Assembly: GCA_947598825.1 (NCBI GenBank)
Contig: CANQFM010000019.1
Span: 1-48,786 of the forward strand
Length of the DNA: 48,786 nt
Origin: an uncultured Eisenbergiella sp.
GTDB lineage: Bacteria; Bacillota; Clostridia; Lachnospirales; Lachnospiraceae
Direction of reading: 5' to 3'
Every line of letters starts with the position of its first letter. The stretch's first letter is position 1. The translations under genes were made by a program, and so were the position numbers. The notes under the pieces are model-generated. The model was not told the DNA's origin. It searched no databases and was given only the letters and a program-made list of their open reading frames with translations. This document shows, in pieces, positions 12,263-27,575 of this stretch.

Positions 12263-13373
12263 CGTTCTTCTCCTTTTCCTTTTGGCAAAGTTTCGTCAGA
12301 TATTCTTCAAACAGGCGCTCATCCGCCGGGAGCTCTACCCAATCATCCGTCCAGGTGGACAAATAGGCCGCATTCGATATCAGGAGGGAATTGATCCCTT
12401 CCTGTCCGTTGGCGATCAGTTCGCTGCCGTTTAAAATCGCTTCCGCAAAATTTTCAAGCACAATCGGATGGCCGTCCGGCACCTGCGCGGTATATTCCTC
12501 ATAATCCGTATCGGGGACATAAAATCCCTCTTTCGAGGTAAAACAAAATTCCCGCTCCGGCGCAGACAGCTTCCACCATTTCAGCTTGCCGTCTTCCAGC
12601 ACCAGCTTTCCCAGATCCCCTGAGATCTCAAGGCGGTTCGTGCCGGGCGTTTCCCCTGTGGTTGAAATAAATACCGCCGTCGCGCCGTTTTCATATTCGC
12701 CGTAGATCGTCACGTCGTCCTCGACGTCGATATTGTGATACTTTCCGAAAGCGCAAAAGGCCCGCACCCTTTTGGGCATACCGAAGATCCACTGCCACAG
12801 ATCGAGATTGTGCGGGGCCTGGTTCAGCAGCACGCCGCCGCCCTCGCCGCTCCAGGTAGCGCGCCAGTTTCCCGAATCGTAATATGCCTGCGTGCGATAC
12901 CAGTTGGTGACGATCCAGACGAGCCGCTTCGGTTTCCCCAGCTTACCGCTCTGGACGATCTCCCGCATCCTGATAAACAGAGGGTTCGTCCTTTGATTGA
13001 ACATGATGCCGAACTTCACAGCAGACTTTTGGGCGGCTTCATTCATTTCGCGGACCTGCCTCGCGTACACGCCCGCGGGTTTTTCCGTCATGACGTGGAT
13101 CCCTCTTTGAAAACATTCCATGGCGCAGGCCGGATGGCCGTAGTGGGGGATCGTCAAAAGCGCCGCGTCTATCAGGCCGCTGTCGAGCATTTCCTTCGCA
13201 TCCAAAAACGTCGCCATAGAAGGCAGCTTCTCCTTCGCTGCCCCGAGTCTGCGTGCATCCGTATCGGCGACCGCCGTTACTTCGATCCTGGGGCACTTTC
13301 CGTCGAGGACGCTCTGCAAATGTCCCATCCCCATGTTGCCCATACCGATGATCCCAAGCCTTACCTTTTCCAT
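12213..13373 (-). CDS. Gfo/Idh/MocA family NAD(P)-dependent oxidoreductase
   Basis: This 386-aa dehydrogenase has an N-terminal Rossmann fold (LGIIGMGNMGMGHL, glycine motif GxGxxG) and the family's catalytic-lysine motif TEKPAG at about residue 97. The C-terminal domain includes GGGVLLNQAPHNLDLWQWIFG, whose His-Asn-Leu-Asp segment is typical. It probably oxidises or epimerises a sugar or inositol-type substrate. The start at 13373 has GGGAGGA upstream. It lies 11 nt after the isomerase gene. The C-terminal tail is very polar (KEKEKNDGRSKGMDGKGDD) and is encoded in the overlap with the DUF5107 gene, so it may be a read-on extension. Confidence 0.9.
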   Translation of the reverse strand: MEKVRLGIIGMGNMGMGHLQSVLDGKCPRIEVTAVADTDARRLGAAKEKLPSMATFLDAKEMLDSGLIDAALLTIPHYGHPACAMECFQRGIHVMTEKPAGVYARQVREMNEAAQKSAVKFGIMFNQRTNPLFIRMREIVQSGKLGKPKRLVWIVTNWYRTQAYYDSGNWRATWSGEGGGVLLNQAPHNLDLWQWIFGMPKRVRAFCAFGKYHNIDVEDDVTIYGEYENGATAVFISTTGETPGTNRLEISGDLGKLVLEDGKLKWWKLSAPEREFCFTSKEGFYVPDTDYEEYTAQVPDGHPIVLENFAEAILNGSELIANGQEGINSLLISNAAYLSTWTDDWVELPADERLFEEYLTKLCQKEKEKNDGRSKGMDGKGDDPDL

Positions 13374-13384
13374 AACGTCCTCCC

Positions 13385-14206
13385 TCACGCGAGCAATCCG
13401 CGAAGCGCGTTCACGGCTTCGTCAAAAGCGGCCTTGGCGGACGGATAACAATACCGGTTCGCCCGCTCCCGCCCTGCTTCCAGCTTTTCCAGGCCGTCAA
13501 ACACCGTCAGATGCGGCTCGATGGTCAACACCTCGCCCCTGTACTGTTCCAGAAGATAGGGAATATTCCCGATGCCCTTTCCCGCAGGGACCACCTGGCC
13601 GTCAGCCAGGGCGTCCTTGATATGCATATATTCCACATAAGGGCTGAGCAGTTTCCACGCCGCTGCGGTATCCTCTTTGCACTGAATGAAATTCGCGGGG
13701 TCAAAGACGGCCTTTATAACCGGAAATTCCCGGTGGATCTGCGCGCACCGCGCCGCCGTGTCCCCAAAAATCCCCTTTTCATTCTCATGGCACAAGATCA
13801 CGCCGCTGCCTCTCGCCGCCTCCTGAAATTTTTCCAGACGGGCCATCACCTCGTCATAATACCCCTCCGCCTCGCCCTGCGGAACATAAAAGCTGAACAG
13901 ACGAATGTGCTTCGCGCCAAACAGATCCGCCAGCTCCAGTCCATGCTTGAACTTCTCCAGATGGGGTCCAAAATCATCCCCGATCCCGATCTTGCCATAG
14001 GGCGAACCGAGGGACCAGACGGATATCCCGGCATCGTCCAGCCGTTTGCGGATCTCCTTCGCCTTTTCTGTCGTCATATCCGAAATATTTTCCCCGTCGA
14101 CGCCCCGTATTTCGAGATAGGAGATCCCGTTCTCCACCAAAGCCAAAATCTGTTCCCCGATGCCGCTGCCCGCTTCGTCGGCGAACGCCGAAAGCCTGAA
14201 CCCCAT
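13385..14206 (-). CDS. Sugar phosphate isomerase/epimerase (xylose isomerase-like TIM barrel)
   Basis: This 273-aa AP-endonuclease-2-type TIM barrel is typical of sugar isomerase/epimerase enzymes. Visible signatures are SAFADEAG near the N-terminus, YLEIRGVDGENI, CHENEKGIFGD (metal-ligand Glu), VFDPANFIQ (Asp/Asn) and YMHIKDAL (His), followed by GKGIGNIPYLL and TIEPHL. These residues normally hold one divalent metal. An AGGAGGG site precedes the ATG. It is the first gene of the operon isomerase, oxidoreductase, DUF5107-TPR, GH2, and probably acts with the oxidoreductase on the released sugar. The exact substrate is unknown. Confidence 0.88.
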   Translation of the reverse strand: MGFRLSAFADEAGSGIGEQILALVENGISYLEIRGVDGENISDMTTEKAKEIRKRLDDAGISVWSLGSPYGKIGIGDDFGPHLEKFKHGLELADLFGAKHIRLFSFYVPQGEAEGYYDEVMARLEKFQEAARGSGVILCHENEKGIFGDTAARCAQIHREFPVIKAVFDPANFIQCKEDTAAAWKLLSPYVEYMHIKDALADGQVVPAGKGIGNIPYLLEQYRGEVLTIEPHLTVFDGLEKLEAGRERANRYCYPSAKAAFDEAVNALRGLLA

Positions 14207-14253
14207 TGCACTTCCCTCCTTTTTCGAGCCATCCCCCGTACTTTTGCTTTTGC

Positions 14254-14282
14254 GCCATATTCCCGGGCAAAAGCCCTGTCAA
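14254..14282 (-). promoter_or_regulatory. Candidate promoter/operator of the sugar operon
   Basis: A consensus -35 TTGACA (14277-14282) and a weak -10 TATGGC (14254-14259) are separated by 17 bp. The spacer contains the inverted repeat GGGCAAAAGCCC (14265-14276), which could be a repressor operator. The rest of the gene-free stretch 14283-14427 shows no other clear feature. Confidence 0.4.
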
Positions 14283-14427
14283 ATATTATGATACAACATC
14301 CTTTTCTTTCCGGCAACTCTCTCCGGCAAAAATCGCAGGAAACGGCGGGGCGCCCGGGACCTGATCCGCAGCGTATTGCGTTTGGGCAGGATTCTTCTGA
14401 GTTCAGAAACTTAAGAGAAATTTACAT

Positions 14428-14464
14428 AAAAAAACCACCGCACGGAGAATATACCTTGCGGTGG
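14428..14464 (-). terminator. Rho-independent terminator of the AT-rich FtsK operon
   Basis: Read on the minus strand, a perfect 8-bp stem CCACCGCA/TGCGGTGG (14435-14442 with 14457-14464) is followed by seven T (14428-14434). It sits about 60 nt after the stop codon of the 1052-aa gene. A further 9-bp inverted repeat (GTTATATTG at 14486-14494, CAATATAAC at 14507-14515) lies between the stop and this terminator. Confidence 0.9.
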
Positions 14465-14522
14465 AAAAACCTGATAGTTCTGCTCGTTATATTGATTGAA
14501 TTATAGCAATATAACAAATATA

Positions 14523-17500
14523 TTATGTTGGAATTCTATAATCCGGATTGAAATCCACACGGGCGGTCACCTGCTCTTTTAAAAAATATATATTATAAAG
14601 TTGATCAACTATATTATTTGATGTTCCAGCCGAAATATCCTGGTAGCAACACATTCCTGATCTTATCAGATTCAAAAATTCTCCATAAATAATTGCTCTG
14701 TTCTTCTGAATATCTGTTTCATTAGAAACGTAATGCTGCTGAAATCTAACCATATCCGCTGCAAAAACCGAATTCTCAAAAACACGTCTCTGATATTCAT
14801 CTTTAATCGTATCGACAACATCATGGATATACTCAAAGTATGAATTGTTCCATTTTTTCATCCCATATTTCCGTTCATAATGCTCCATCATATATTGATC
14901 CATCATTTTCTGATAATATGGGATCTGTATATCATGCCTTGTTAAATTCCATATTTTTTCGTTTAATCTTACCAGCAACCTGCTTTTTTTTAAATGGGGT
15001 ATAGCCCAATCTAAAATTTTCAGCATATGTACTCCGCCATTAAAAATTTTTCCGGCAGTTGTACTTGAAACAAGATCCAGACCTCCTAATTGTACTTTTT
15101 TCAAAATGTCGGTGTCTGAATCCGTCACTGAAAATAATTTAGACAAATCCCAGGTTCCCTTCCCCCATAAGCCGCAAAATATTGAAATTTGATGAATAAT
15201 CGCGTTCAGCTTATCAAAGCCGTCCCCCAAATCCTTAAATTTTTCCTTATAAAATTTATTAATAGGTTCAAGTATCTCGTTTGTCTGCTTACAGGCATAC
15301 GCCATATCCCGTAATGATTTTTTAGTAACTGTGTATCTTCCATAATCATTTTGATTTTTATCCTGTTCCGACAGGGGTTCGTCATCGGCAGTGTTTGAAT
15401 AGGCTTTCCTGCGGCGCAATGTATCATAATGCTTCTTAACAAAGGAATTTAATTCATCTACTCCAACTTGATTAACTATTATTTCAACAACGTGAATAAA
15501 CAATTTAATATTGTCTTCATTAAATTCATCTTTTTCGAATTCTTTAGAACCGTTTATGAAATCAATATCCCTTTTATCAACAGATTTCTCGTTTATATTT
15601 AAAATTCTGACAAACTCGCTTGATGCCCATTCATTAAACTTGGCTATTTCATTACCATCCTGTTCCAATATATATCCATTAATAATCGGATTAAACAGAA
15701 CGTACGCTCCGTACACTAAATTAGTGTCATTGGCTTTTCCTTTTTCACAGGCGGACGCAATATTGCTCAACATCCGTGCAACCCGATTAAATACTGTATA
15801 AGTAGAAGCTGCATAGTTTTTAAAAGCCCCTAAGCCATCTCCTTCAAAAAATCTTTCGTTTCCATTTTCTTTCGTTACATCAACATATTCTCTCTTTCTG
15901 TATTTTTCCCTTTCATCTCTATTATCAAAACCATCTTGCAATAATTCTCCATATTCCTGATAAAAAGTTTCATATATTGGCATGATTTCTTTAATTTTTG
16001 TATAGCTGAGAACTTTATCATAATTAAATTCCTCATAATAGATCTTATCATATAAGTACCGGGTTATTTTTTTAAATTCACCAAGCGACTTCCTTTTCGC
16101 CTGATTATTCATGTTTGAAGCCAATGCATATATCGTTCCATCGAACTCCTCCATAAAATCCTTTTTTTCCATCCTTACTTCATGTATAGTAAAGTCCTCC
16201 AATTTTTTAAAGTCTTCAGATGTAACAAATATCTGCTCTGTTTCTACTGCGGATTTATTTCTGGACAAATGCCCATTGGCCGCAATGATTCCTCTCGCAA
16301 TATCCAAAGTTTCCCCAAGTTTCACTTCATACTCCATAAAATACCTGCGAAACCCAAACTTCATATTTCCATGGTCTTCGTCACCGTAATACGCGCACAG
16401 TTGTAATGCGTCGTACACATCAGACGCGGACATTTTTCTCAATCTGTTAAATTCTTTTTTCCCAAAAAAATAATTTCCAGCTTCCCTTTCAAACGAAACC
16501 TGCAATTTATACAATTTGGTACATTCTTCTAATGTATCGAAAGTATAATTATCCCTTCCCGAATATTGATTGACATGTTGTCCCACTTTAAAACTTCCCT
16601 GCCACAGTCTGGCTCTTTCAACTTTTGAAAGAAGTTCCGTAATCCCTGAATGCTCATTGCTTATGAATCCCAAATCTCTTAAGTATTCTCCTTCCGTTTT
16701 ATATCCTCTCCTACCGGAGACTTCGGCTTTGTGCTTTATCATATATTTCCATTCCTGCTTTTCAGCCACACTGAGCCTTTTCAATAAAGTTTTAATAAAA
16801 TCATCTCTTTTAGGAAGTCTTTCTTCTTCCTGATCTCTCCATCTTTTTTCCCTTGATTTATCCCGATACCAAATAGATTCACAATACAATATGGTCTTTC
16901 CTAAAATACTCTCAGTAATATAACTAAACAAATAGGCATCAATATCACTGTCACCATTGCCGATACCGGAAGGATTAACGCTCGCTCCAGCTCCACTGAT
17001 TACAGAATTTTCCCCATGCGGGCTTTTGTTTCCGCTTTCATTCTCATCAAAAATATTCTGCATCCGAGATACATTTTCTTTAACAAACTCATGCAGTTCA
17101 ATGAAACTATTCAAAGAAGCTTCCAAAAAGGCATCCATCTCTGATTGAACACCTTTAAATAAAGGGCAAAGAGTACCATAAATTTCATTTTCCGTATTTC
17201 TGTTTTCAGCTAGTGCAATATATTTTTCACTAATATTCTGTATTTCAACACGGGAATTCGAGCATACATCCTCAAGGCGCACTAAACCATCCTCACTTAC
17301 AATGGGACGTTCTGTAACAATCGTGTTCATTTTTTCTATTTTCAGTATATCCCTCGTCAGATCTTCCATATACCGCTCGACTTGCGCACATATTTCATCT
17401 GCCGCCTCCCCGGCCCTATATGTTCTTAAACAAGACCTGAGCGATCCGTCAGAACCCTCCCACGCCATAAATAATCCGTTCTTAATTTTGCCGGCGATCG

Positions 17501-17681
17501 TTTCCATATAGGTATCAATTATATTGGATATCTGTCGTTGCAGTTTATCATATTTTGATTCCAGCATTATTTCATTGAACACACCCATAAGTTTCTGGTT
17601 AAGCGACTGGATCTGTTCGAGATATTCCCTAAAAAAAGAAGTATAGGCATTTGTTTCTTCTTCTCTTAAATTAATTTTCAT
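14523..17681 (-). CDS. Large helical protein with N-terminal module paralogous to the 243-aa neighbour (unknown function)
   Basis: I do not recognise a named family for this 1052-aa protein. It is charged and predominantly helical, without a signal peptide. Residues 1-205 align with almost no gaps to the 243-aa protein encoded two genes upstream: Trp74 (AWEGSDGS) with Trp77 (QWMAGEGS), AGEAADEICAQVE with AGDDAVEIAREIE, and RPIVSEDGLVRLEDV (from Arg125) with RPIVTSENFDELKNI (from Arg130). A third, weaker copy of the last motif is at 484-496 (IFVTSEDFKKLED). A low-complexity Gly/Ser/Asn linker (about 215-245) separates the module from the rest. The C-terminal ~800 residues match nothing I know. 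Last gene of the operon, it could be a substrate or effector of the FtsK machine or a structural subunit. AT-rich codon use differs from the flanking genes. Confidence 0.85.
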   Translation of the reverse strand: MKINLREEETNAYTSFFREYLEQIQSLNQKLMGVFNEIMLESKYDKLQRQISNIIDTYMETIAGKIKNGLFMAWEGSDGSLRSCLRTYRAGEAADEICAQVERYMEDLTRDILKIEKMNTIVTERPIVSEDGLVRLEDVCSNSRVEIQNISEKYIALAENRNTENEIYGTLCPLFKGVQSEMDAFLEASLNSFIELHEFVKENVSRMQNIFDENESGNKSPHGENSVISGAGASVNPSGIGNGDSDIDAYLFSYITESILGKTILYCESIWYRDKSREKRWRDQEEERLPKRDDFIKTLLKRLSVAEKQEWKYMIKHKAEVSGRRGYKTEGEYLRDLGFISNEHSGITELLSKVERARLWQGSFKVGQHVNQYSGRDNYTFDTLEECTKLYKLQVSFEREAGNYFFGKKEFNRLRKMSASDVYDALQLCAYYGDEDHGNMKFGFRRYFMEYEVKLGETLDIARGIIAANGHLSRNKSAVETEQIFVTSEDFKKLEDFTIHEVRMEKKDFMEEFDGTIYALASNMNNQAKRKSLGEFKKITRYLYDKIYYEEFNYDKVLSYTKIKEIMPIYETFYQEYGELLQDGFDNRDEREKYRKREYVDVTKENGNERFFEGDGLGAFKNYAASTYTVFNRVARMLSNIASACEKGKANDTNLVYGAYVLFNPIINGYILEQDGNEIAKFNEWASSEFVRILNINEKSVDKRDIDFINGSKEFEKDEFNEDNIKLFIHVVEIIVNQVGVDELNSFVKKHYDTLRRRKAYSNTADDEPLSEQDKNQNDYGRYTVTKKSLRDMAYACKQTNEILEPINKFYKEKFKDLGDGFDKLNAIIHQISIFCGLWGKGTWDLSKLFSVTDSDTDILKKVQLGGLDLVSSTTAGKIFNGGVHMLKILDWAIPHLKKSRLLVRLNEKIWNLTRHDIQIPYYQKMMDQYMMEHYERKYGMKKWNNSYFEYIHDVVDTIKDEYQRRVFENSVFAADMVRFQQHYVSNETDIQKNRAIIYGEFLNLIRSGMCCYQDISAGTSNNIVDQLYNIYFLKEQVTARVDFNPDYRIPT

Positions 17682-17710
17682 CTGTTTCCTTATTCTCCAA
17701 TATAAATTCT

Positions 17711-17737
17711 CCCCCGGTACATTTCTGTACCGAGGGG
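17711..17737 (-). other. Intercistronic RNA hairpin with GAAA loop
   Basis: Between the FtsK-like gene and the 1052-aa gene, the minus-strand transcript can form CGGTACA-GAAA-TGTACCG extended by CCCC/GGGG with a one-base bulge. The loop fits a GNRA tetraloop and no T-tract follows, so this looks like an mRNA processing, stability or partial attenuation element rather than a terminator. Confidence 0.6.
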
Positions 17738-17741
17738 CTGC

Positions 17742-20700
17742 TTAAGCGTTGAGTAACCGTTCGATAAAATCAGGTGCCTGTATTTCATCAAGATTCGATT
17801 TATACATCTTAAATGGAATATCAAATCCCTTACTTCTGATACCAAAGTTTACCACTATAGAGTCAAGCGGCTGCTTCGTATACCTAATATCGAACATAGA
17901 ATAAAATTTTTCAATATTTCCTGTAATAAAGGCATAATCAAACGCCTTCCGTATTAGTGTATCTCTTAATTCTGATGTGATAATGCTTATAACAAGTATA
18001 TTTTGGTTGATCGCATTCCGAATTATTTCTATTAATTGATTGGGTACTTTTTCAATTTCATCCAATCCATTGATCCAAAATACTACTTTTTTAAAATCCC
18101 TTATTGACGATTCTCCCGTATATTGTCCGGCAAACCAATCAAAGACATCCGCAGCGATCACTCTGGTTTTTTCATCAAGCCTCTCACCATTTAATTCCCA
18201 TCTTATCGAGCTGCCGTCAAAGGAATATTCCACCTCCGGGGTGAGAGGTTTATCTTTCCTGTAACCTAACTGCGTATACGAAGTATCAAAAATATAACTC
18301 ATGAATTCATTCATATGCACCATCATTCGATCTTCTGCCTCTTTCAGTTCAAGGGGTTCTGCTTCCAATACTGAAATTTGATTTTGTATGTCTTGTTTTT
18401 CTTCCGCCAACTTTCTCAATTGATCAGCAATATCCTTTTTCGACTCATAATCCTTTTTATATACTTTGACCGCTGATTCAACAGAAGAATAGATTTTCTC
18501 CAGTACAGGCGACAGTGTCGTCTGTACTGGAATTTTTCCTTCATACCTGTCTGCAAAAAACATGATCGCTCTTTTAAAAATCTTATTCCTCAGTATTGCC
18601 AGATCTTTCTGATTTCTTTCATGTTCATTTTTACATTCAATTTTTGACAATGCCTCAATCCTTGTGTTCAATATTTCCAAACTTCTTTGGGAAGCAATGA
18701 TCAAATCAAGATTCGTGGAAAATGCGGAGACCACGTCATTATAGCAATTCAATTCTGTCAGATTTACTTTGATATGATCTGTCGGTATCAATTCAATATT
18801 ATAAGAACATTTTTCCAGGAAATTTATTATGGGAGAAGCCAATCTTTTATCATTTTCCCGGTTAAACTCAAAAATTCGATGATCGACTTCCGATAGTCTG
18901 TCCGATAATTTCTGTTTCATCTGCTTTTTCTTATTATATTGTTCAACCTTCAATGGATCCCGGAGAAGCCGGACCAAATCCTCTTCGTCACTTTTTATGA
19001 CGGGTAATGATCCCGAATTATTATCCACATATTTCCTCGATAAGGTACGAAGATAATACATTAACTCCAAAAACTCTATCGCATCATCTACATCGCATGG
19101 ATAATACTGATGAATATCCGACTTTGGAATATCAAGATCGATCCGATATTTTCCAAAAACCAAATTATTCAATTCCATACCAAAATGATATGTTACTTCA
19201 TTTGACCTTATTAAATTTTCTGTGAGAAGCTTTCTGATCCTCGCAGCGTTATCCGGCTCAGGGCATGCGATCATAATGCCCTTATTTCTACCCTTTTCAA
19301 TGTAAAATGATACTTTATCATTTGGTTTTGGCGAATAAAGAACTGTTTTCCCCAAAATAACAGCGTCAAACAGAGCGTTGTTCTGCATCACCAACTCATT
19401 CTTTCTATCTTTGATGGCATCCAGATCAGCGCGATACGCTGTTTCCGTCTCCTGCAGTTCCTCTCTGTAAAACTTCTGAGATAACGTCTTATATCGCAGC
19501 TCATTCTCATACTGCTTGCCTGCCAGCTTGATCTCATCCAGGAAGACATAAAAAGCTGTTTTGGCGTCATCATCATCGTCATCTTTTTTATCTGTTTCAA
19601 TAAACGGAACCCTGTACCTTTGATTCTTTTGTACATCACCAGATTCGGTATTAATAAGCACATATCCTCTATCCAGATTTACCGCCTCGCTGTTGCCCAA
19701 AATATCCGTAGAGATCTGCTGGTTACAAGGCAGACACATCCTGATTTTAAAATTTGCGAGAGTATTGCCCCTTAATGTTCCGGACATTTCCTGAGAAGCA
19801 AAAATCAAATGAAATCCGGTTGCACGTCCCAATTTCGTTATGGAATTAAGCATGGTCTGGATTTCTTCTGCTTCCCTGTTCGTTGCTTCCGTAAAAAGCT
19901 GCTGAAACTCATCCACGATCAATAACACCCTGGGAAGCACTAACCCGTATCTGTTGCGGAATTCCTGAATCTTGGTAACTCCAAGTCTCGCAAAAAATTC
20001 CTGTCTTGCATTCATGCAGTCCACTAAATATCTGATAAGCGATATAACGTAACGGATCTCACTGGTGGCAGCGCAGGCATTGATATGCGGAGTAAATGGA
20101 GTATTCCCATTTTTATCATCCGCATTGTTCATGTATCTGCTTAATTCCACCTTTTTAAAATCTGCCAGATACAGATTAAGTTCCCATGGAGAATATTCAG
20201 TGATCAAACTTAATATCAAGGCATTGATATAAACCGATTTGCCGGATCCGGTCCGCCCGGCGATGAGCCCGTGTACATTATCATCGCACATCCTGATAGG
20301 AGTAAAAATATCTCTGTCATCATTCAGATTTCCCGGACGCAGATTGATCCCAGTCAGAGTCTTGTCCATCCACATCCGTTCCCCGTCCCCAGCTTTAGAT
20401 GTCCCTTTCAGTTTCGGAACATGATCCAGTCTAATCCTTTGAAACGAAGCTTTTTTCTTCTGAAACAGCTCATGCGCCTTGCTTGCGTTGTCGCTGACAT
20501 CATCAAACTCTTTCAGAAATTCCAACGGTTCCGGGCAAATAACGATTTCTTCACTTCCGTCATACAAATATACGTCTGAACTGCCCTTTTTCTTATCAAA
20601 AGAAAGACCAAATTCCTCCGCCTTATACTTGGTATTTAAGATCTCAGTATTATTAAATTTTTTAACAAAATTACTTTCATATTCGACCAGATCCAGCTTA

Positions 20701-20747
20701 TCCGATGATCCGGCAGAAACCGTTTCATTATTATTCAAAAAGCCCAT
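17742..20747 (-). CDS. FtsK/SpoIIIE (EssC-like) ATPase
   Basis: This 1001-aa protein has one intact FtsK/HerA-type ATPase domain (about 150-385): Walker A GRTGSGKS at 164-171, the LYLADFKKVELSRY strand, Walker B LLIVDE at 275-280, and FASQEMSGTLRGNTLANFKIR as sensor region. A second, degenerate domain begins near 460 (YSPKPNDKV, then NKGIMIACPEPDNAARIRKLL without a GKS loop). It is interrupted by a long coiled coil and closes near 890 with VVFWINGLDEIEK, a Walker-B-like strand. This one-active, one-dead arrangement resembles the multi-ATPase EssC/EccC motors of type VII secretion, but no FHA domain or membrane span is visible. It would need a membrane partner, perhaps the 943-aa protein. An AAGGTGA site precedes the start, 20 nt after the 243-aa gene. 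Confidence 0.9.
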   Translation of the reverse strand: MGFLNNNETVSAGSSDKLDLVEYESNFVKKFNNTEILNTKYKAEEFGLSFDKKKGSSDVYLYDGSEEIVICPEPLEFLKEFDDVSDNASKAHELFQKKKASFQRIRLDHVPKLKGTSKAGDGERMWMDKTLTGINLRPGNLNDDRDIFTPIRMCDDNVHGLIAGRTGSGKSVYINALILSLITEYSPWELNLYLADFKKVELSRYMNNADDKNGNTPFTPHINACAATSEIRYVISLIRYLVDCMNARQEFFARLGVTKIQEFRNRYGLVLPRVLLIVDEFQQLFTEATNREAEEIQTMLNSITKLGRATGFHLIFASQEMSGTLRGNTLANFKIRMCLPCNQQISTDILGNSEAVNLDRGYVLINTESGDVQKNQRYRVPFIETDKKDDDDDDAKTAFYVFLDEIKLAGKQYENELRYKTLSQKFYREELQETETAYRADLDAIKDRKNELVMQNNALFDAVILGKTVLYSPKPNDKVSFYIEKGRNKGIMIACPEPDNAARIRKLLTENLIRSNEVTYHFGMELNNLVFGKYRIDLDIPKSDIHQYYPCDVDDAIEFLELMYYLRTLSRKYVDNNSGSLPVIKSDEEDLVRLLRDPLKVEQYNKKKQMKQKLSDRLSEVDHRIFEFNRENDKRLASPIINFLEKCSYNIELIPTDHIKVNLTELNCYNDVVSAFSTNLDLIIASQRSLEILNTRIEALSKIECKNEHERNQKDLAILRNKIFKRAIMFFADRYEGKIPVQTTLSPVLEKIYSSVESAVKVYKKDYESKKDIADQLRKLAEEKQDIQNQISVLEAEPLELKEAEDRMMVHMNEFMSYIFDTSYTQLGYRKDKPLTPEVEYSFDGSSIRWELNGERLDEKTRVIAADVFDWFAGQYTGESSIRDFKKVVFWINGLDEIEKVPNQLIEIIRNAINQNILVISIITSELRDTLIRKAFDYAFITGNIEKFYSMFDIRYTKQPLDSIVVNFGIRSKGFDIPFKMYKSNLDEIQAPDFIERLLNA

Positions 20748-20767
20748 TTATATCACCTTAAATATCC

Positions 20768-21499
20768 TTAAACATCCTTAAACATATTTAACGTCTCTGC
20801 TATCTCTTTTGCTCCAGCGGAAGTCCGAGTCACCTCTACCAAAGCATCTTTATTATGTTGCTCCTGAGTTCTTATAAATCCCGCGCTTTCCTGCTTCGCT
20901 TCTTTTATTTGAGCCCCAAACTGCTCAAAAGCAATCTTCATAGGTTCTGTGATAGCTTTTACAGCCGGAAGGATCACATTATAAGTCGGATCGTCATTTC
21001 CCTTTTCCCTGATCGTCTTAATCGTTGCCTCACCAATAGTTTCAATCCCCTGAGAACTTCTGGTATATATATTTTTCAGTTCATCAAAGTTTTCCGACGT
21101 TACTATCGGTCTGCTTGTATCGGCAGTTAATTCTTCCATACAGGTTAATTGCCAAAAATCAGCAAAATGATCTTGGATCCTCCCTTCGATTTCCCTTGCA
21201 ATCTCCACAGCATCATCTCCTGCCTGACTAATTTTTGAGGCAGCTTCAAACGACCCCTCTCCTGCCATCCATTGGTTAAACGCATCAACAGAAAGCTTTT
21301 TAATCTCTTCTTTAAGCTGACGTATCGTATTATTGGCGGCATCTAACATTGGCTTATAACATGTAGTATTACATAAAGCTCCCAGGGCATCATGCATTGT
21401 CCTCAACTGTTCGTTAAAGTCAGAACATAAACTTGCATAGATTTTATCTAATTCCCCTTCGATTTCAGTTGTTAAATTAATGTGAATATTCGCAGCCAT
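20768..21499 (-). CDS. 243-aa helical protein, stand-alone copy of the module found in the 1052-aa protein
   Basis: No known family is recognised. This 243-aa protein is almost wholly helical, begins MAANIHINLTTEIEGELDKI, and has a Trp motif QWMAGEGS near residue 77 and RPIVTSENFDELKNI at 130-144. The C-terminal third is rich in Gln, Glu and Lys and looks like coiled coil. It shares its layout with the first 205 residues of the 1052-aa protein in the same operon. Size and helical hairpins recall LXG- or WXG-type substrates of type VII secretion, but this is only an analogy. The start at 21499 was chosen for the GGAGGAG site about 7 nt upstream; an 18-residue upstream extension would overlap the preceding gene. 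It lies directly before the FtsK-like gene. Confidence 0.85.
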   Translation of the reverse strand: MAANIHINLTTEIEGELDKIYASLCSDFNEQLRTMHDALGALCNTTCYKPMLDAANNTIRQLKEEIKKLSVDAFNQWMAGEGSFEAASKISQAGDDAVEIAREIEGRIQDHFADFWQLTCMEELTADTSRPIVTSENFDELKNIYTRSSQGIETIGEATIKTIREKGNDDPTYNVILPAVKAITEPMKIAFEQFGAQIKEAKQESAGFIRTQEQHNKDALVEVTRTSAGAKEIAETLNMFKDV

Positions 21500-21521
21500 A
21501 TTTGTTCTCCTCCTTCCGGTT

Positions 21522-24353
21522 TCAATACCCACTGGTATATTTCTTTCCATCAAAAATCAGGACTTCACCATTTGCCAGATTCTTGATGTCTTTATAAATG
21601 GAATCCTTTTCCTGACTTTCTCTTTTCCACGTGTTTCTCTCACAAATAAATACCGGCAAGAATCCGTATTTTTCACATCCGGTACTCAACATTCTGAGTT
21701 CATCATCCAGCTTGTTCCTCTTTTCGTCCGGTTTGAAGATTATATACAAAATATTGTAGGTTAACGGCCTGTCCTGCGAGTTAAACTTGCTTTCATTTAA
21801 CTCATCAATTGTTTTTCCCATTGCTGCAAGCTTATCCTTCTGCATGGAAAAACTTTTGATTCTTGCTCTGATGTCTTCAATTCTTCCAACCACTTCACCA
21901 ATATTGAAAGCATTTTTAACATTAGTGCTCATCAGATCGTTTGTTGCGGCATTCCCGTCTACAATAAATTGCATATAGGTCTCTTTGCTGTTAATACGAT
22001 ATACTGCATACATAAGATCAAACATCAAATCATGAATGATCTTATTCACTTCCTCTACTTTCTCTTCAGTAGATGTTATATCATAGTTTACAACAAAGGC
22101 TTTTTTGTTGTGATCTACCCGATATATCTTCCTGTGGTTACAGTTATCTCTCTCGTCGTTATCAGGCACAATATACAAGGAATTGTTTAATTTCCCCTTC
22201 GTGAAACTCATGGGAGCAATCCATGTTTCATCATTCAGCTTCTCATCGAAGATACTGTACGCGTTTTCAAAAGCTTCCATAAACTGCGTATTTTCTTCTA
22301 TTTCTTTTTTTAAATTGCGAATCTCTGAATCCAGGCCTTTAACTTTTGATGTCAGTGAGTCAATCTGAATCTGCAATTCTTCTTTTTCTTTATTAAAGTT
22401 TGCCCTATCTTTTGCTGCCTTTTCATTAATGCTCTTGATCTCCGCATTGCGATCTCTTTCAATCTGTGCAATTACATTCTCAAATTCTTTCTTAATCAAT
22501 TTCAAATCGTTTTCATAATCCGATTTAATGTCAGCGTCCTTCGCATCATGCAAATTCTGCGCCTCCGTACGGCCATAATGTACAGCGTACAGTTTATCGC
22601 CCATTTCCTTCATCATTGCCAATTCTTTATCTCTGGTAATCTGAGTAGAATGAGCAGCGATACATGGAAACTCATGATAATCAGACGCCAGCGATATATA
22701 TCTGCATATTTTGGAAAATTCTTTCCTCGTCTTAAATATGGTAAAGGCAGCCAGGGCAATACCTATAACAGCCGTTGCAATCCCTGCCATTTCCGTTACA
22801 ACAGACATATTTAATGCAAACACAAGAACAACAAATGAAATGATTCCTAATGCAGCCAATATGCCGCCTGCAATAGTAAATATGCCATTGTATTTTGCAA
22901 ATACGCTTAATTGATCATTATACTGCGTTGCTTCAGATAATTCCGACTGCAATTCGTCGTATTCTTTTGATACCAATATTCCTTTCTGTTTCTCATGCTC
23001 TTTTTCATATATGGGACTCAGCTTGCCCTTTTTGATACAGGAAAGCTGCGCCATCCATGTATCGATCCTTCCTTGCAGGGCTACATAGGGGGCATTCTGT
23101 TCATCTAAAACCGTAGCGAAGCATGTATCGCCGCTCATTGCATATTCAACGATCTGCTGATCGATTCTGTTATTATTATTACTCTGGGCCCGTCTCTCTA
23201 ATTCAATATCATTATTATACTGAGATTCTTTGGAATGACACTCGTTTTCCCTCTGATCGATCTTATATTGAAGAGCGGCTGTTTGTCTATCCCTTTCCTG
23301 AATTAAATCATTATATATCTTCGTAGGCTCTGAAAGTTCCTGTGTCCTGTCAGAAATAACCGATTCAAGCTGGCTTTCAGCCTTTTCAATAAGCTTTGCA
23401 TACCTGTTTTGAACCGTTTCTATTTTCTGATCGATATCGAATACTTTTCTGTTAACTCTGTTATTGGCCTTCTGAATTTGATCGTTTATCGCATTTAATC
23501 TGGAAATCTTGCTGCTTTCCAACCTTGTAGTCGGAGCATTTTTTAATTTCGCAATGCGAATCTGTTCATTATATTTTCTCTCAGTCTTTTTAAACTCTTT
23601 CTGATATCCATCTATTTCATTATTTGTGAATTGAATCTCTTTATTTTTCTCTTCCTGTAGCTGGCCCACTTCTCCATCTCTTCTGGATATTTGCTCAGAA
23701 ACAGCATTCTGGCAGGCACGAATACCCGGTTGAAATTTATAATTGATAGAATCAATTATCCCCTTGAACTTTTCCACATCAGGTTCAAATTCTGAATTAA
23801 CATCATCCTGTCTGCTTTTCAGTTCACCAATCTCTGTTTGACAGGCAAGCCGTTCCTGAGTGATTGCATCTTCAAATTCATTGATCCTATCATTAGAGGC
23901 TGCAATGAACTGTCGTCTCTGGATCTCGAATTCTAATGCTTTCTTCTCTGTTTCCGTAAGTTCACGATCCGCATCCGCATCATTCCCTAGCAGTTGTGTC
24001 AATCTTTCCTTAAGCAGATTATCATTTTCCCGTATATCCTCATCTCGCTTATGGCTCAGTTCGCTCTTTCTTTCCTCAAATTTTCTTTTTTCGTCATCCG
24101 TTCTTTTCTGTGCAGAATTTTTCACATCCTGTACAGTTCCGGCAAGATCCCCCTGTTCATAGGAACCCATGGATGACAACCTGCCCTGAAGCCCACTAAG
24201 CTCGATGCTGTAAGAATCAAACTTACTTTGCTTCAAAGATAATTCTTCCCTATACTCTTCGTTTTTCTTCTTTTTTTCTGCAAAAGTACCTGAATCAACA
24301 CAATACTTTTCCAGTGTAATTGCCGGGTTATCCCTTTGCCAACCCAAATCCAT
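21522..24353 (-). CDS. Coiled-coil membrane protein with degenerate FtsK-like C-terminal domain
   Basis: This 943-aa protein is SMC-like in appearance. A long coiled coil (about residues 20-440) is followed by two adjacent membrane spans at about 480-545 (AGGILAALGIISFVVLVF and AGIATAVIGIALAAFTIF), a second coiled coil (about 590-710), and a globular C-terminus. The C-terminus (from about 745) tracks the FtsK domain of the neighbour: KAFVVNYDITSTEEK in place of Walker A, MQFIVDG, IRARIKSFSMQKDKLAAMG matching VDCMNARQEFFARLG, and TYNILYIIFKPDE in place of Walker B. Key Gly-Lys-Ser and Asp-Glu residues are missing, so it is probably a pseudo-ATPase that could pair with the active ATPase. The start at 24353 has GGAGGAAAGG upstream; the first possible Met at 24395 has no ribosome site. 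Confidence 0.88.
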   Translation of the reverse strand: MDLGWQRDNPAITLEKYCVDSGTFAEKKKKNEEYREELSLKQSKFDSYSIELSGLQGRLSSMGSYEQGDLAGTVQDVKNSAQKRTDDEKRKFEERKSELSHKRDEDIRENDNLLKERLTQLLGNDADADRELTETEKKALEFEIQRRQFIAASNDRINEFEDAITQERLACQTEIGELKSRQDDVNSEFEPDVEKFKGIIDSINYKFQPGIRACQNAVSEQISRRDGEVGQLQEEKNKEIQFTNNEIDGYQKEFKKTERKYNEQIRIAKLKNAPTTRLESSKISRLNAINDQIQKANNRVNRKVFDIDQKIETVQNRYAKLIEKAESQLESVISDRTQELSEPTKIYNDLIQERDRQTAALQYKIDQRENECHSKESQYNNDIELERRAQSNNNNRIDQQIVEYAMSGDTCFATVLDEQNAPYVALQGRIDTWMAQLSCIKKGKLSPIYEKEHEKQKGILVSKEYDELQSELSEATQYNDQLSVFAKYNGIFTIAGGILAALGIISFVVLVFALNMSVVTEMAGIATAVIGIALAAFTIFKTRKEFSKICRYISLASDYHEFPCIAAHSTQITRDKELAMMKEMGDKLYAVHYGRTEAQNLHDAKDADIKSDYENDLKLIKKEFENVIAQIERDRNAEIKSINEKAAKDRANFNKEKEELQIQIDSLTSKVKGLDSEIRNLKKEIEENTQFMEAFENAYSIFDEKLNDETWIAPMSFTKGKLNNSLYIVPDNDERDNCNHRKIYRVDHNKKAFVVNYDITSTEEKVEEVNKIIHDLMFDLMYAVYRINSKETYMQFIVDGNAATNDLMSTNVKNAFNIGEVVGRIEDIRARIKSFSMQKDKLAAMGKTIDELNESKFNSQDRPLTYNILYIIFKPDEKRNKLDDELRMLSTGCEKYGFLPVFICERNTWKRESQEKDSIYKDIKNLANGEVLIFDGKKYTSGY

Positions 24354-24416
24354 TTGTACCTTTCCTCCTCTTCCGCACCACGGCGTCATATTCATTCTTT
24401 AACAATTTCAGACATA

Positions 24417-24923
24417 TTATTTATCACAAAATTCACATCTACCATCTATTGAATTAATATGCCTGCCGCATTTAGGGCAGAAAATAGCTTCTTCATTTAT
24501 CGGGTTATTTAATGAGCTCACCTGCTGTTTTCTCGCCATTTTATTAATTTTTTGAAATGTTAATCCGGAATATTTTTTATGTACGGCAAAACTAATGACA
24601 AAGAAGATGATACCAAACAGTAATCCGATAAAAGAAAATCCATTCGCAATTAAGCTGGCAAAGGCATATACCACCAGTGCCCAAACAAGGCTGAACAATA
24701 TAGCAGCCAACCATGCCAATGATTTAAAGGTTCCCAATAAAATCGGAAATGCAAATCCAACAACGGCTGCAACTATAAAGGAAACGATAGGCGATACATC
24801 CCTAAGAGATAGTGCAAAGAGTACAACAAACCCCAGAATATAGGCTTCAATTGAAATCAGTTTCCCGCCCCTCATTTTTGTAAAATTTTCACGGGTAATT
24901 TCTGCTTTTGTTTTCCTGCTCAC
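24417..24923 (-). CDS. Zinc-ribbon membrane protein
   Basis: This 168-aa protein has a short polar N-terminus, four hydrophobic spans (ISIEAYILGFVVLFALSL, IVSFIVAAVVGFAFPILLG, LAWLAAILFSLVWALVVYAF, FIGLLFGIIFFVISFAV) and a C-terminal zinc ribbon (FCPKCGRHINS...CEFCDK, two CxxC pairs). The start is GTG at 24923 with GGGAGGAG five nt upstream. It is the first gene of the AT-rich operon and sits about 65 nt behind the candidate poly-G promoter. Function is unknown. It may anchor or regulate the coiled-coil/FtsK complex, or act as a redox or zinc sensor. Confidence 0.82.
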   Translation of the reverse strand: MSRKTKAEITRENFTKMRGGKLISIEAYILGFVVLFALSLRDVSPIVSFIVAAVVGFAFPILLGTFKSLAWLAAILFSLVWALVVYAFASLIANGFSFIGLLFGIIFFVISFAVHKKYSGLTFQKINKMARKQQVSSLNNPINEEAIFCPKCGRHINSIDGRCEFCDK

Positions 24924-24993
24924 TGAATCTCCTCCCGAATGGCTTTATCCTCTATGTGTTTTACTGCTTTACAGAAGCACAATCTGATAGACT

Positions 24994-25018
24994 AAGCATA
25001 CCCCCCCCCGATATGCTT
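24994..25018. repeat. Poly-C/G tract flanked by a 7-bp inverted repeat
   Basis: AAGCATA (24994-25000), nine C, GA, then TATGCTT (25012-25018). The two heptamers are perfect inverted repeats, and one holds the -10 box of the candidate promoter. This is the longest homopolymeric C/G run that I noticed in the window. Confidence 0.85.
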
Positions 25019-25025
25019 TTGTCAA
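24995..25025 (-). promoter_or_regulatory. Candidate phase-variable promoter of the FtsK operon
   Basis: On the minus strand a consensus -35 TTGACA (25020-25025) and a -10 TATGCT (24995-25000) are separated by 19 bp that include a run of nine G (25001-25009). Slippage to seven or eight G would give the optimal 17-18 bp. No other good promoter is visible in the 24924-25172 gap, which otherwise holds no feature I can identify. Confidence 0.65.
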
Positions 25026-25172
25026 GGAAAATAATCGCAAAAGTCGGCGTCATCACATTTGATGATTGGCACCGCTTAGCACAGACTCCGAGTTTTGGAC
25101 AGAAAGATTATAAAGAGAAAGGAAATACGAAAAGCAAATTATAAAAAGTCGAAATATAGAATATTCAAAATC

Positions 25173-25227
25173 AAAAAAAATGTATGGTTGCAAGGTGGTT
25201 GCAGCGCAACACCAGCACTCCATACAT
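25173..25227 (-). terminator. Terminator of tRNA-Gly(GCC)
   Basis: On the minus strand ATGTATGG (25220-25227) pairs with CCATACAT (25180-25187), enclosing a smaller hairpin GTTGC-GCT-GCAAC. A run of eight T (25173-25180) follows. It separates the tRNA transcript from the FtsK operon, which therefore needs its own promoter. Confidence 0.75.
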
Positions 25228-25250
25228 CCCTTTCTTTTAAGCGTGTTTAG

Positions 25251-25323
25251 AGCGACAGACGGGGCTCGAACCCGCGACCTCCACCTTGGCAAGGTGGCGT
25301 ACTACCAACTGTACTACTGTCGC
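25251..25323 (-). tRNA. tRNA-Gly(GCC)
   Basis: A complete cloverleaf on the minus strand: acceptor GCGACAG/CTGTCGC, anticodon stem CCACC/GGTGG, loop TTGCCAA with anticodon GCC, and T-arm GGTTCGAGCCC. The 3' CCA is not encoded. Its 3' end faces the AT-rich operon, the orientation usual when tRNA genes serve as integration sites. Confidence 0.95.
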
Positions 25324-25353
25324 ATTCTGTCCGCTCTCTCGCGGACAATAACT

Positions 25354-25382
25354 ATAATACACAAAGACCCTATAAATGTCAA
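25354..25382 (-). promoter_or_regulatory. Promoter of tRNA-Gly(GCC)
   Basis: A perfect -35 TTGACA (25377-25382), a 17-bp spacer and TATTAT (25354-25359) on the minus strand, about 30 nt before the tRNA 5' end. Confidence 0.85.
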
Positions 25383-25438
25383 CCACTTTTTTCAAAAACT
25401 TTTCCGGCCCGGACACAGGCCCAGCATAGGCTCTGCGC

Positions 25439-25810
25439 TCAATCCTCCGCCTCTTCTACGTCGCCCGTCCCGATATCTACCATATTAATGGTGCGCCGTT
25501 TCAGCCTGGCCTGTTCGGAGGCCTCGAGGATAAAATCCTTGATCTGCTTCGCATTCCTGATATGGACAAGCTGCAGCTCCCTGTTCGTCGTATCGCCGGT
25601 ATAGCACACTACCGTCCCCAGCTTGAAGGCCCGCTCCCAAAGGCTGGTCCTCAGCTCCACGTCCTGCACTTTATACATATAACAGTCGTTCTCTTTCCGG
25701 TTCAGAAATCCTTCCTGGACGGTGATCATCTCATCTTTGATCAAATACCGGGTGAAGGTGAAAGGAAGGCCCAGAAAGCCCCATCTCTTTTTTTCCTGAA
25801 AAAACTTCAT
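25439..25810 (-). CDS. PH domain-containing protein (bacterial PH, YdbT-like)
   Basis: This 123-aa protein resembles the bacterial PH domain (bPH2, YdbS/YdbT-like): RYLIKDEMITVQEGFLNRKENDCYMYKVQDVELRTSLWERAFKLGTVVCYTGD, followed by LQLVHIRNAKQIKDFILEASEQAR. The beta-rich core and closing helix are visible. No membrane spans are present, unlike many YdbS/YdbT proteins. The start at 25810 follows AGGAGG; the longer frame to 25900 has no comparable site and would run over the promoter. The function of single bPH2 proteins is unknown. Confidence 0.82.
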   Translation of the reverse strand: MKFFQEKKRWGFLGLPFTFTRYLIKDEMITVQEGFLNRKENDCYMYKVQDVELRTSLWERAFKLGTVVCYTGDTTNRELQLVHIRNAKQIKDFILEASEQARLKRRTINMVDIGTGDVEEAED

Positions 25811-25888
25811 GACAAACCTCCTTTTCTCTGCGCTTACCGAACAGCCCTGCCTGCCGGGCATCGCGCATCGGACAGTCCTTTTGAAAAC

Positions 25889-25917
25889 AGTATACGGCAT
25901 CCCGGCGGTTTTTGCAA
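25889..25917 (-). promoter_or_regulatory. Promoter of the PH-domain gene
   Basis: TTGCAA (25912-25917), a 17-bp spacer and TATACT (25889-25894) on the minus strand, about 72 nt before the start codon. Confidence 0.6.
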
Positions 25918-25924
25918 TTCTTTC

Positions 25925-25953
25925 TTGAAATCACTTTTTCCCTATGATATACT
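25925..25953 (+). promoter_or_regulatory. Promoter of the nitroreductase gene
   Basis: TTGAAA (25925-25930), a 17-bp spacer and TATACT (25948-25953) on the plus strand, divergent from the PH-domain promoter and about 65 nt before the ATG. Confidence 0.65.
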
Positions 25954-26025
25954 GATTCAAATATATGGATTCGCTGCCCGTCCGGACGCATTTTTCGTCC
26001 TGCGCGGCGGCAGACTGGAGGGTAT

Positions 26026-26565
26026 ATGACTGCGAAGGATTGTATTCTGAGCCGCAGGAGCATTCGCAAATTTACGGATCAGCCGGTGGATCATGAACTG
26101 TTGGAAAGCATCGTTGCCACCGCTTCCTATGCGCCGAGCTGGAAGAATACGCAGATCGTCCGCTATATCGCTGTGGAGGGCGGATTGAAGGACCGCATCG
26201 CCGGCGAATGTACTACCGCTTTTCCCAACAACGGCAGGATCATCGAAGGCGCGCCCGTGCTGATCGCCGTCACCGTCATCAAGAACAGATGCGGCTACGA
26301 GCGCGACGGTTCCTTTACGACCCCGCGCAAAGACACCTGGCAAATGTTCGATGCCGGGATCGCGTCCCAGACGTTCTGCCTTGCCGCCCATGAGGCGGGG
26401 CTTGGTTCCGTTATCATGGGGATCTTTGACCGGGAAAAGGCGGAGACGCTCCTGGAGCTTTCCTCCGACCGGGAACTGGTAGCGCTGATCCCTGTCGGTT
26501 ATCCCGCAGAGGAACCCGCCGCACCCAGACGGAAAGACGTTTCCGAATTGATCACATTTCAATGA
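26026..26565 (+). CDS. Nitroreductase family protein
   Basis: This 179-aa FMN-dependent nitroreductase fold begins ILSRRSIRKFTDQPVD (the SRRSxRxF flavin phosphate site) and continues with ATASYAPSWKNTQIVRYI. LAAHEAGLGSVIMGIFDREKAETLL covers the conserved helix, and ALIPVGYPAEEPAAPRRK closes the fold. It is of the short clostridial type. The substrate is unknown; members reduce nitro compounds or quinones or have unknown roles. GGAGG precedes the ATG closely. A hairpin with a T-tract follows the stop codon, before pyrB. Confidence 0.9.
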   Translation: MTAKDCILSRRSIRKFTDQPVDHELLESIVATASYAPSWKNTQIVRYIAVEGGLKDRIAGECTTAFPNNGRIIEGAPVLIAVTVIKNRCGYERDGSFTTPRKDTWQMFDAGIASQTFCLAAHEAGLGSVIMGIFDREKAETLLELSSDRELVALIPVGYPAEEPAAPRRKDVSELITFQ

Positions 26566-26577
26566 ACATCCTATGAG

Positions 26578-26610
26578 AATCGAAGGGAAGCTCTTCTCTT
26601 CGATTTTCTT
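26578..26610 (+). terminator. Terminator or attenuator between the nitroreductase gene and pyrB
   Basis: AATCGAAGGGAAG (26578-26590) pairs with CTTCTCTTCGATT (26593-26605; one G-T wobble, innermost pairs must open), followed by a T-rich tail TTTTCTTT. It lies only 38 nt before the pyrB ATG, leaving no room for a separate promoter between, so it may regulate read-through into pyrBI. Confidence 0.7.
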
Positions 26611-26648
26611 TGGGCCAAAACCGAAACAAAAAGGAGGACACGCATCCC

Positions 26649-27563: not shown

Positions 27564-27575
27564 AGGAGGCGCTCC

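What the first reader, a model, noticed from the sequence alone, without database searches (positions are those of the whole stretch)
14428..25025. Five-gene AT-rich operon encoding a candidate FtsK-based translocation or defence system
Between a dedicated terminator and its own candidate promoter lie, in order, a zinc-ribbon membrane protein, a coiled-coil membrane protein with a dead FtsK-like end, a 243-aa helical protein, an FtsK/EssC-like ATPase, and a 1052-aa protein sharing the 243-aa module. Active plus inactive ATPase domains with small helical partners recall type VII secretion, but EssA, EssB, EsaA, EsaB and short WXG100 genes are all absent. I know of no described system with this set. 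It could export the 1052-aa protein, move DNA, or act against phages.
Basis: partly seen in the sequence, partly recalled or inferred. Interest (0 to 1): 0.9.

Follow-up and report, generated by a model that had tools for sequence, protein, structure and literature searches.

The report
Split-motor type VII-like export island
A small block of foreign genes in a gut bacterium looks like a rare, unnamed protein-pumping machine related to type VII secretion, but apparently with its motor cut into two proteins and without the usual small partner proteins.

Summary
The operon is real: five minus-strand genes, 37.5% GC in about 54% GC flanks. They lie in an insertion of about 11.0 kb 3' of tRNA-Gly; congener G158 has the flanks without it.

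Coiled-coil membrane protein, ~240-aa helical protein (P3), FtsK/EssC-type ATPase and long protein (P1) recur in this order in 4 of 6 other loci with the ATPase; in one of these (L038) the coiled-coil and P1 genes are assigned by position only. The zinc-ribbon gene is not conserved.

The ATPase has one intact motor domain and falls with T7SS EssC rather than SpoIIIE/FtsK, but outside EssC. A dead ATPase-like end on the coiled-coil protein is suggestive, not firm. P3 and the P1 N-terminus share one module, followed by unrelated C-termini. Own genome: no WXG100, LXG or YukD match and no full EssC.

Best reading: a T7SS-like exporter with split motor that moves the P3-P1 pair. Export is inferred. 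It fails T7SS membership. Closest described: CoCoNuT-associated coiled-coil EssC-like ATPases. New variant of a known kind.

The parts
14227..25248 (.). AT-rich island of about 11.0 kb inserted 3' of tRNA-Gly; no integrase recognised in it
   Evidence: Blastn against congener G158 (L095): window 12264-14226 (80.7%) and 25249-28010 (80.4%) match blocks that lie 36 bp apart in L095. GC 0.34-0.42 per kb from 14 to 25 kb, about 0.54 outside. No attachment-site duplication found.
25250..25323 (-). tRNA-Gly (GCC), the insertion neighbour
   Evidence: ARAGORN and Rfam
24995..25025 (-). candidate promoter TTGACA-19-TATGCT; the spacer holds nine G (C on + strand, 25001-25009) flanked by the 7-bp inverted arms AAGCATA/TATGCTT
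   Evidence: Only G or C run of 8 or more in the window. 51 of 2000 Markov simulations of the island had a run of 9 or more. Not listed by the consensus scan.
24417..24923 (-). P0005, 168 aa: about four hydrophobic segments and a C-terminal zinc-ribbon-like region; accessory, not conserved
   Evidence: Zn_Ribbon_1 E 0.0042, below its cut-off; best non-self blastp among 246 ORFs of 14 loci E 0.81
21522..24353 (-). P0004, coiled-coil membrane protein, 943 aa from its likely start: two transmembrane segments mid-protein; C-terminal region that may be an inactive EssC-type ATPase domain
   Evidence: Start; TM segments; tail against EssC
20768..21499 (-). P0003 (P3), 243 aa all-helical module protein
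   Evidence: AlphaFold2 pLDDT 85.9, six helices; relatives in all 6 other loci, each recognised when its locus is left out of the profile, E 1.9e-15 or better
17742..20747 (-). P0002, FtsK/EssC-type ATPase, 1001 aa; one intact motor domain (Walker A GRTGSGKS at 164-171, Walker B LLIVDEFQQ at 275-283)
   Evidence: PF01580 E 3.2e-26; EssC model E 1.8e-23; phrog_1358 E 2.4e-42; motifs intact in 7 of 7 family members
14523..17681 (-). P0001 (P1), 1052 aa; N-terminal ~205 aa is a P3-type module, the rest has no recognised domain
   Evidence: no family at E <= 0.1 in Pfam, NCBIfam, PADLOC or PHROGs
14428..14464 (-). intrinsic terminator after P0001
   Evidence: Hairpin plus T7

Best explanation
A horizontally acquired, membrane-anchored protein-export machine that works like a minimal type VII secretion system with a split motor. 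P0004 anchors the machine in the membrane and offers a probably dead ATPase-like end as docking ring. P0002 supplies the only active FtsK/EssC-type motor domain. P0003 pairs with the matching N-terminal module of P0001, and the ATPase recognises the pair and drives P0001, whose large C-terminal body is the cargo, into or across the membrane. Shown: gene set and order, one intact motor domain, the shared module, insertion as an island, absence of the canonical T7SS parts that I searched for. Inferred: the dead domain, assembly of P0004 with P0002, pairing of P0003 with P0001, export, and the nature of the cargo (some P1 relatives carry strongly hydrophobic segments, so a membrane-acting effector is my guess).
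For: Order coiled coil-P3-ATPase-P1 in the window, L036, L050 and L051 with all four recognised by sequence, and in L038 with two of four. Tree of 57 motor domains, rooted by me on SpoIIIE: the 7 family members lie in a 16-tip coiled-coil-FtsK clade (support 99) next to 28 EssC D1/D2 domains; the split of these 44 tips from SpoIIIE/FtsK and two Herelleviridae FtsK has support 99. Best solved relative by sequence is YukB, the B. subtilis EssC, E 1.2e-20, then 4nh0 (an EccC; that name is recalled) at 2e-17 and FtsK at 4.8e-15. P0004 tail against EssC (suggestive). In L059 two TM segments and an active motor domain lie in one open frame. The module comes as a pair: P3 + P1 N-terminus in four loci, P3 + P3 in G157; a profile search of the genomes G000, G157, G329, G420 and G917 found no copy outside the operon (the operon copies were rows of that profile). 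P1 has the same N-terminal module before two unrelated C-termini (window/L036 and L050/L051), the layout of T7SS effectors (PMC10653861, passages). L050 and L051 P1 have 4 and 3 strong hydrophobic segments.
Against: No WXG100 or LXG similarity of the module: hhalign against 5 WXG100 sequences P 0.012, probability 3.6%; neither family among the 25 of 59 Pfam families shown for 13 members, nor in the full P0003 list; no fold hit at E <= 0.001 in PDB or viral models. The dead-domain evidence is thin. A second dead domain in P0002 456-1001 was not shown (P 0.058). The best family model for the motor is the phage family phrog_1358, 145.7 bits against 82.2 for EssC. I saw no immunity-type gene recurring beside P1, by eye only. 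P1 C-termini are about as conserved within a clade (39%, 42%) as coiled-coil protein and P3 (35-45%), more like a component than a fast-changing toxin. No P1 next to the ATPase in L034, nor in the 788 bases available in L052. Family monophyly has support 67. L038 P1 and coiled coil, and the L052 coiled coil, are not recognised when left out of the profiles (E 0.78, 250, 250).
Confidence: 0.45

Rival explanations
1. An anti-phage (or anti-plasmid) defence system: the ATPase-coiled-coil complex at the membrane senses infection and triggers P1, which damages the cell's own membrane or blocks the invader.
For: Sister ATPases in defence-type operons: L055 stands beside a kinase and a helicase that matches Mokosh MkoA (PADLOC E 9.9e-78). 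PMC11090510 (section 10 read) describes EssC-like coiled-coil ATPases inside CoCoNuT restriction operons. The window operon is cargo beside a tRNA, and L038 and L050 have integrase genes close by. Some P1 have hydrophobic segments.
Against: PADLOC finds nothing at E <= 0.001 in the other four window proteins, nor in the 6 coiled-coil, TPR and P1 relatives among the 10 proteins given to (P3 relatives and the coiled-coil proteins of L038, L051 and L052 were not given). No nuclease or NADase domain in the Pfam scans of the window proteins and of the L050, L051 and L052 operon relatives given. The FtsK-capture defence systems in the passages of PMC10853773 that I read carry nucleases.
Confidence: 0.25
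2. A DNA-translocating machine of a mobile element (conjugation-like transfer, segregation or packaging) of which the operon is a remnant.
For: FtsK-superfamily motor, best matched by phage family phrog_1358; island beside a tRNA; the nearest related ATPases (L053, L054; about 200 bits) lie in elements with exonuclease- and primase-like genes (L053) and a polymerase-like gene below its cut-off (L054).
Against: No relaxase, integrase, replication or capsid family among the five genes over a cut-off. The motor falls on the EssC side of the tree and scores higher with EssC (82.2 bits) than with the FtsK model (35.5 bits); no FtsK gamma domain listed. Pattern-limited scans of viral contigs gave no relative, and plasmids none for P0001 and P0004 (P0002 was not searched there).
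Confidence: 0.15

Closest known systems
CoCoNuT-associated / stand-alone coiled-coil EssC-like ATPase operons (PMC11090510, section 10; it cites Anantharaman 2012, which I did not read)
   Same: EssC-related ATPase with a long coiled coil, an active domain plus inactive one(s), two small helical partners, mobile, predicted secretion
   Different: Here coiled coil and active motor are two genes, the coiled-coil part has transmembrane segments, the partners carry a ~200-aa module not recognisable as WXG100, and no VWA, CARF or nuclease domain was found among the five proteins
T7SSb (EssC/YukB with EsxA, EsaA, EssA, EssB, EsaB, LXG effectors)
   Same: EssC-type motor domain; helical module shared by a small partner and the N-terminus of a large protein
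   Different: No WXG100, LXG or YukD match and no full-length EssC in the genome; motor and membrane part in two proteins
T7SSc to T7SSj (PMC11217815; abstract, passages and part 2 of 3 of Results read)
   Same: Compact EssC-based cluster in Bacillota with variable accessory genes
   Different: [quoted passage not shown] kinase, phosphatase or FHA genes in many, none here
SpoIIIE/FtsK DNA translocases
   Same: FtsK_SpoIIIE motor fold
   Different: Different branch of the tree; no gamma domain listed; P0004, P3 and P1 partners

Membership tests
Type VII secretion system (T7SSa/b/c-j) | Membrane-bound EccC/EssC ATPase with several C-terminal NTPase domains in one chain | tested here: not met
   P0002 82.2 bits against the TIGR03928 cut-off of 778.4; no match over the cut-off in the own genome; membrane segments are in a separate gene
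Type VII secretion system (T7SSa/b/c-j) | EssC-type active motor domain | tested here: met
   Best solved match YukB E 1.2e-20; split from SpoIIIE/FtsK with support 99. Related to, not within, EssC
Type VII secretion system (T7SSa/b/c-j) | WXG100 protein (EsxA/TsxA) | tested here: not met
   PF06013 at E <= 0.01: none in the own genome; 2 of 7 operon genomes have matches, on other contigs. P3 against a WXG100 profile P 0.012, probability 3.6%
Type VII secretion system (T7SSa/b/c-j) | Ubiquitin-like EsaB/YukD (almost universal) | tested here: not met
   PF08817: none in the own genome; 0 of 7 over the cut-off, 2 of 7 with a weaker match (G157, G420)
LXG effector family | LXG domain PF04740 | tested here: not met
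   No match in the own genome; not among the Pfam families shown for 13 module sequences (25 of 59 shown)
Type VII secretion system (T7SSa/b/c-j) | Exports its helical substrate pair across the membrane | not testable with these tools
   Needs a secretome experiment
CoCoNuT-associated EssC-like operon | Coiled coil fused to the ATPase, no TM, with WXG100 proteins and CoCoNuT/VWA genes | tested here: not met
   Two genes, TM segments present, no WXG100 match in the genome, no such family among the five genes
Known anti-phage defence systems in PADLOC | Match to a defence protein beyond the generic FtsK core | tested here: not met
   only P0002 matches at E <= 0.001, over its FtsK core (SspH, mad8, HerA models); 0 of the 6 operon relatives given
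FtsK/SpoIIIE DNA translocase | Motor domain within the FtsK/SpoIIIE clade | tested here: not met
   Tree of 57 domains; clade labels were given by length and number of motor domains, not by a separate scan

The most novel reading that the evidence does not exclude
A separate lineage of EssC-related protein export that needs no WXG100 protein: a two-protein motor (membrane coiled coil with dead ring plus soluble active ring) moves one dedicated pair of ~200-aa helical modules, with exchangeable C-terminal cargo, and spreads as a tRNA-linked island. In the window the operon may be switched on and off by slippage in the nine-G promoter spacer.
Probability: 0.27. Interest if true: 0.75.

Novelty: new variant of a known kind. 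Interest (0 to 1): 0.58.

Why it matters
The EssC/EccC motor and the WXG100 protein are the two parts shared by T7SSa and T7SSb (PMC11217815, abstract). A mobile four-gene relative without WXG100 would show which parts of such a machine are dispensable, and could be rebuilt in a laboratory strain more easily than a full T7SS. It would also test whether the EssC-like ATPases seen inside defence operons export proteins.

Tried and rejected
Canonical T7SSb: rejected, see the membership test. Known defence system: no PADLOC match beyond the ATPase core. Phage origin: P0002 matched 192 of 50,697 phage records, all below 60% identity and none covering 80% of the query. Two annotated Herelleviridae loci show no operon partner by annotation, and their motors fall outside the family; the third record opened (L097) has no annotation, and its motor falls in the coiled-coil-FtsK clade. 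Viral contigs: no relative in three pattern-limited scans. Structure: P3 gave a good model but no fold match at E <= 0.001. The P0004 tail model was poor (pLDDT 45), with kinesin motor domains as top hits, none at E <= 0.001. P0002 456-1001 as a second dead ATPase domain: not significant. P3 as an internal duplication: N half against C half P 0.0057, probability 6.5%, not pursued. RNA elements: only the tRNA. Literature: the listings (10-15 papers at most were listed per call; one search found none) show no description of this gene set; subscription papers are mostly missing from the library. After a check of my own groupings I lowered the best explanation from 0.5 to 0.45, the novel case from 0.3 to 0.27 and interest from 0.6 to 0.58.
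Full report
What is in the window. Five minus-strand genes lie at 14523-24923: P0005 (168 aa), P0004 (943 aa from its likely start at 24353), P0003 (243 aa), P0002 (1001 aa) and P0001 (1052 aa). The operon has 37.5% GC in flanks of about 54%. A hairpin-T7 terminator closes it. A weak TTGACA-19-TATGCT promoter candidate opens it (not listed). A tRNA-Gly ends at 25250.

It is an inserted island. In congener G158 both flanks are present at about 80% identity, and the matching blocks lie 36 bp apart; the sugar-isomerase gene starts 57 bp after tRNA-Gly there. In the window 11.0 kb lies between the same points. No attachment duplication was seen and no integrase among the five genes. Of 13 genomes of the genus, 2 (own and G157) have a family ATPase. 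L038 has a tyrosine-recombinase gene 0.4 kb before the 560-aa gene that precedes the operon, and L050 an integrase-like gene about 1 kb from it.

The set recurs. ATPase profiles found family members in L036, L037 (= G157) and L038 (3 of 43 pattern stretches) and in G329, G420 and G466. In that draw of 392 genomes of the order, 11 had a hit at E <= 1e-30; 4 of these, the own genome included, are family members and the others more distant. A draw of 398 genomes of the phylum gave only the own genome at 1e-40; in both draws at most two candidates per genome were scored. Of 38 genomes of the family of G329, the 2 known ones matched. So the family looks rare.

How firm the grouping is. I left each locus out of the profiles and searched 246 ORFs of 14 loci. 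P3 and ATPase are recognised in every locus (P3 E 1.9e-15 or better; ATPase 4.6e-174 or better). The coiled-coil protein is recognised in 4 of 6 (window, L036, L050, L051), not in L038 or L052 (E 250 each). The P1 N-terminus is recognised in 4 of 5, not in L038 (E 0.78). Best hits outside the operon reach 1.2e-6 with P3 profiles (the helical part of L059), so the P3-only match to L038 P1 (2.4e-5) means nothing. Hence order coiled coil-P3-ATPase-P1 is shown by sequence in the window, L036, L050 and L051, and by position in L038, where the membrane segment upstream of P3 lies in a separate 560-aa gene. L052 has coiled coil (by position and TM only), P3 and ATPase, with 788 bases before the contig end and no P1 in them. 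G157 has two P3 genes and the ATPase, begins at a contig end, and shows no P1 downstream.

The motor. Walker A and B motifs are intact in 7 of 7. P0002 matches FtsK_SpoIIIE (E 3.2e-26), EssC (82.2 bits, cut-off 778.4) and, best of all, phage family phrog_1358 (145.7 bits), all over the motor domain. The nearest solved structure by sequence is YukB. In the tree the family joins L053/L054 (100), L059 (97), then other coiled-coil FtsK proteins (99); next comes EssC, and SpoIIIE and two Herelleviridae FtsK lie outside (split 99). I set the root on SpoIIIE; the seven family members alone have 67.

The coiled-coil protein. Its last ~240 residues resemble EssC by profile: P 1.5e-5, probability 79.7% with six relatives, P 2.4e-4, probability 43.6% with the four firm ones, and P 0.25 with window and L036 alone. 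The structure model was unusable. In L059 two membrane segments and the active motor are one open frame, but its middle part is only weakly similar to the P0004 tail (P 0.0061, probability 6.1%). A dead domain is therefore plausible, not shown.

The module. P3 is predicted as six helices and matches no solved or viral fold at E <= 0.001. A profile of P3 and P1 N-termini, searched in 9 genomes, found the operon copies (which were rows of that profile): two each in G000, G157, G329, G420, G917 and G918, one in G466 (contig end), none in G158 and G156. The only further hit was marginal (G918, E 0.0067). P3 proteins beside a P1 end in a phenylalanine closely followed by an acidic residue, such as MFKDV or LFSE (5 of 5); the three without P1 do not. 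This recalls T7SS C-terminal signals (FxxxD of Lap1, PMC10653861, passages) and is only a resemblance.

P1. Behind the module the C-termini of window/L036 and of L050/L051 show no similarity to each other; the L038 protein resembles neither (blastp E 1.1 or worse between groups; hhalign P 0.049 or worse). L050, L051 and L038 carry strongly hydrophobic segments; window and L036 only moderate ones. Within a clade the C-terminus is about as conserved as P3 and the coiled-coil protein and less than the ATPase, which argues against a fast-evolving toxin.

Is it a T7SS? The own genome (99.6% complete, 110 contigs) has no WXG100, LXG or YukD match and no EssC over the cut-off; 5 of 7 operon genomes have no WXG100 match at E <= 0.01. 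Membership fails; motor and module logic resemble T7SS. PMC11217815 (abstract, passages, part 2 of 3 of Results) lists T7SSc-j; none fits what I read. PMC11090510 (passages, section 10) describes the nearest thing: EssC-like coiled-coil ATPases with one active domain of three and two WXG100-type proteins, without membrane segments, inside CoCoNuT operons or stand-alone. PMC10853773 (passages) describes FtsK-capture defence systems with nucleases.

Verdict. The best reading is a T7SS-like exporter with split motor for a dedicated P3-P1 pair (0.45; lowered from 0.5), ahead of defence (0.25) and DNA movement (0.15). All functional steps are inferred. New variant of a known kind.

Noticed in passing
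window 24994-25018: Nine G (C on + strand) in the spacer of the candidate promoter, flanked by inverted arms AAGCATA/TATGCTT; could allow switching by slippage. No G or C run of 8 or more in the six other family loci or L095; an assembly error is possible.
   Followed up: partly
L035 1327-18005 (G156): A different cluster in a congener: HerA-like ATPase (980 aa), small coiled-coil protein, 616-aa protein, 1185-aa coiled-coil FtsK ATPase, kinase-, FHA- and Clp-like genes (named by eye; only the FtsK protein was scanned).
   Followed up: no
L055 8353-18972 and L056 508-11183: Coiled-coil FtsK ATPase operons; in L055 beside a kinase and a helicase matching Mokosh MkoA; L056 has genes of similar sizes in the same order.
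   Followed up: partly
L053 3346-16692, L054 7294-13418: The nearest related ATPases outside the family sit in elements with exonuclease- and primase-like genes (L053) and a polymerase-like gene below its cut-off (L054), perhaps phage or plasmid.
   Followed up: partly
L052 3799-4590: A 263-aa cysteine-rich protein without a Pfam match lies between the coiled-coil gene and P3.
   Followed up: no
L034 83-1521: G157 has two P3 paralogues in tandem and no P1 downstream, as if the P3-P1 pair were replaced by a P3-P3 pair.
   Followed up: partly
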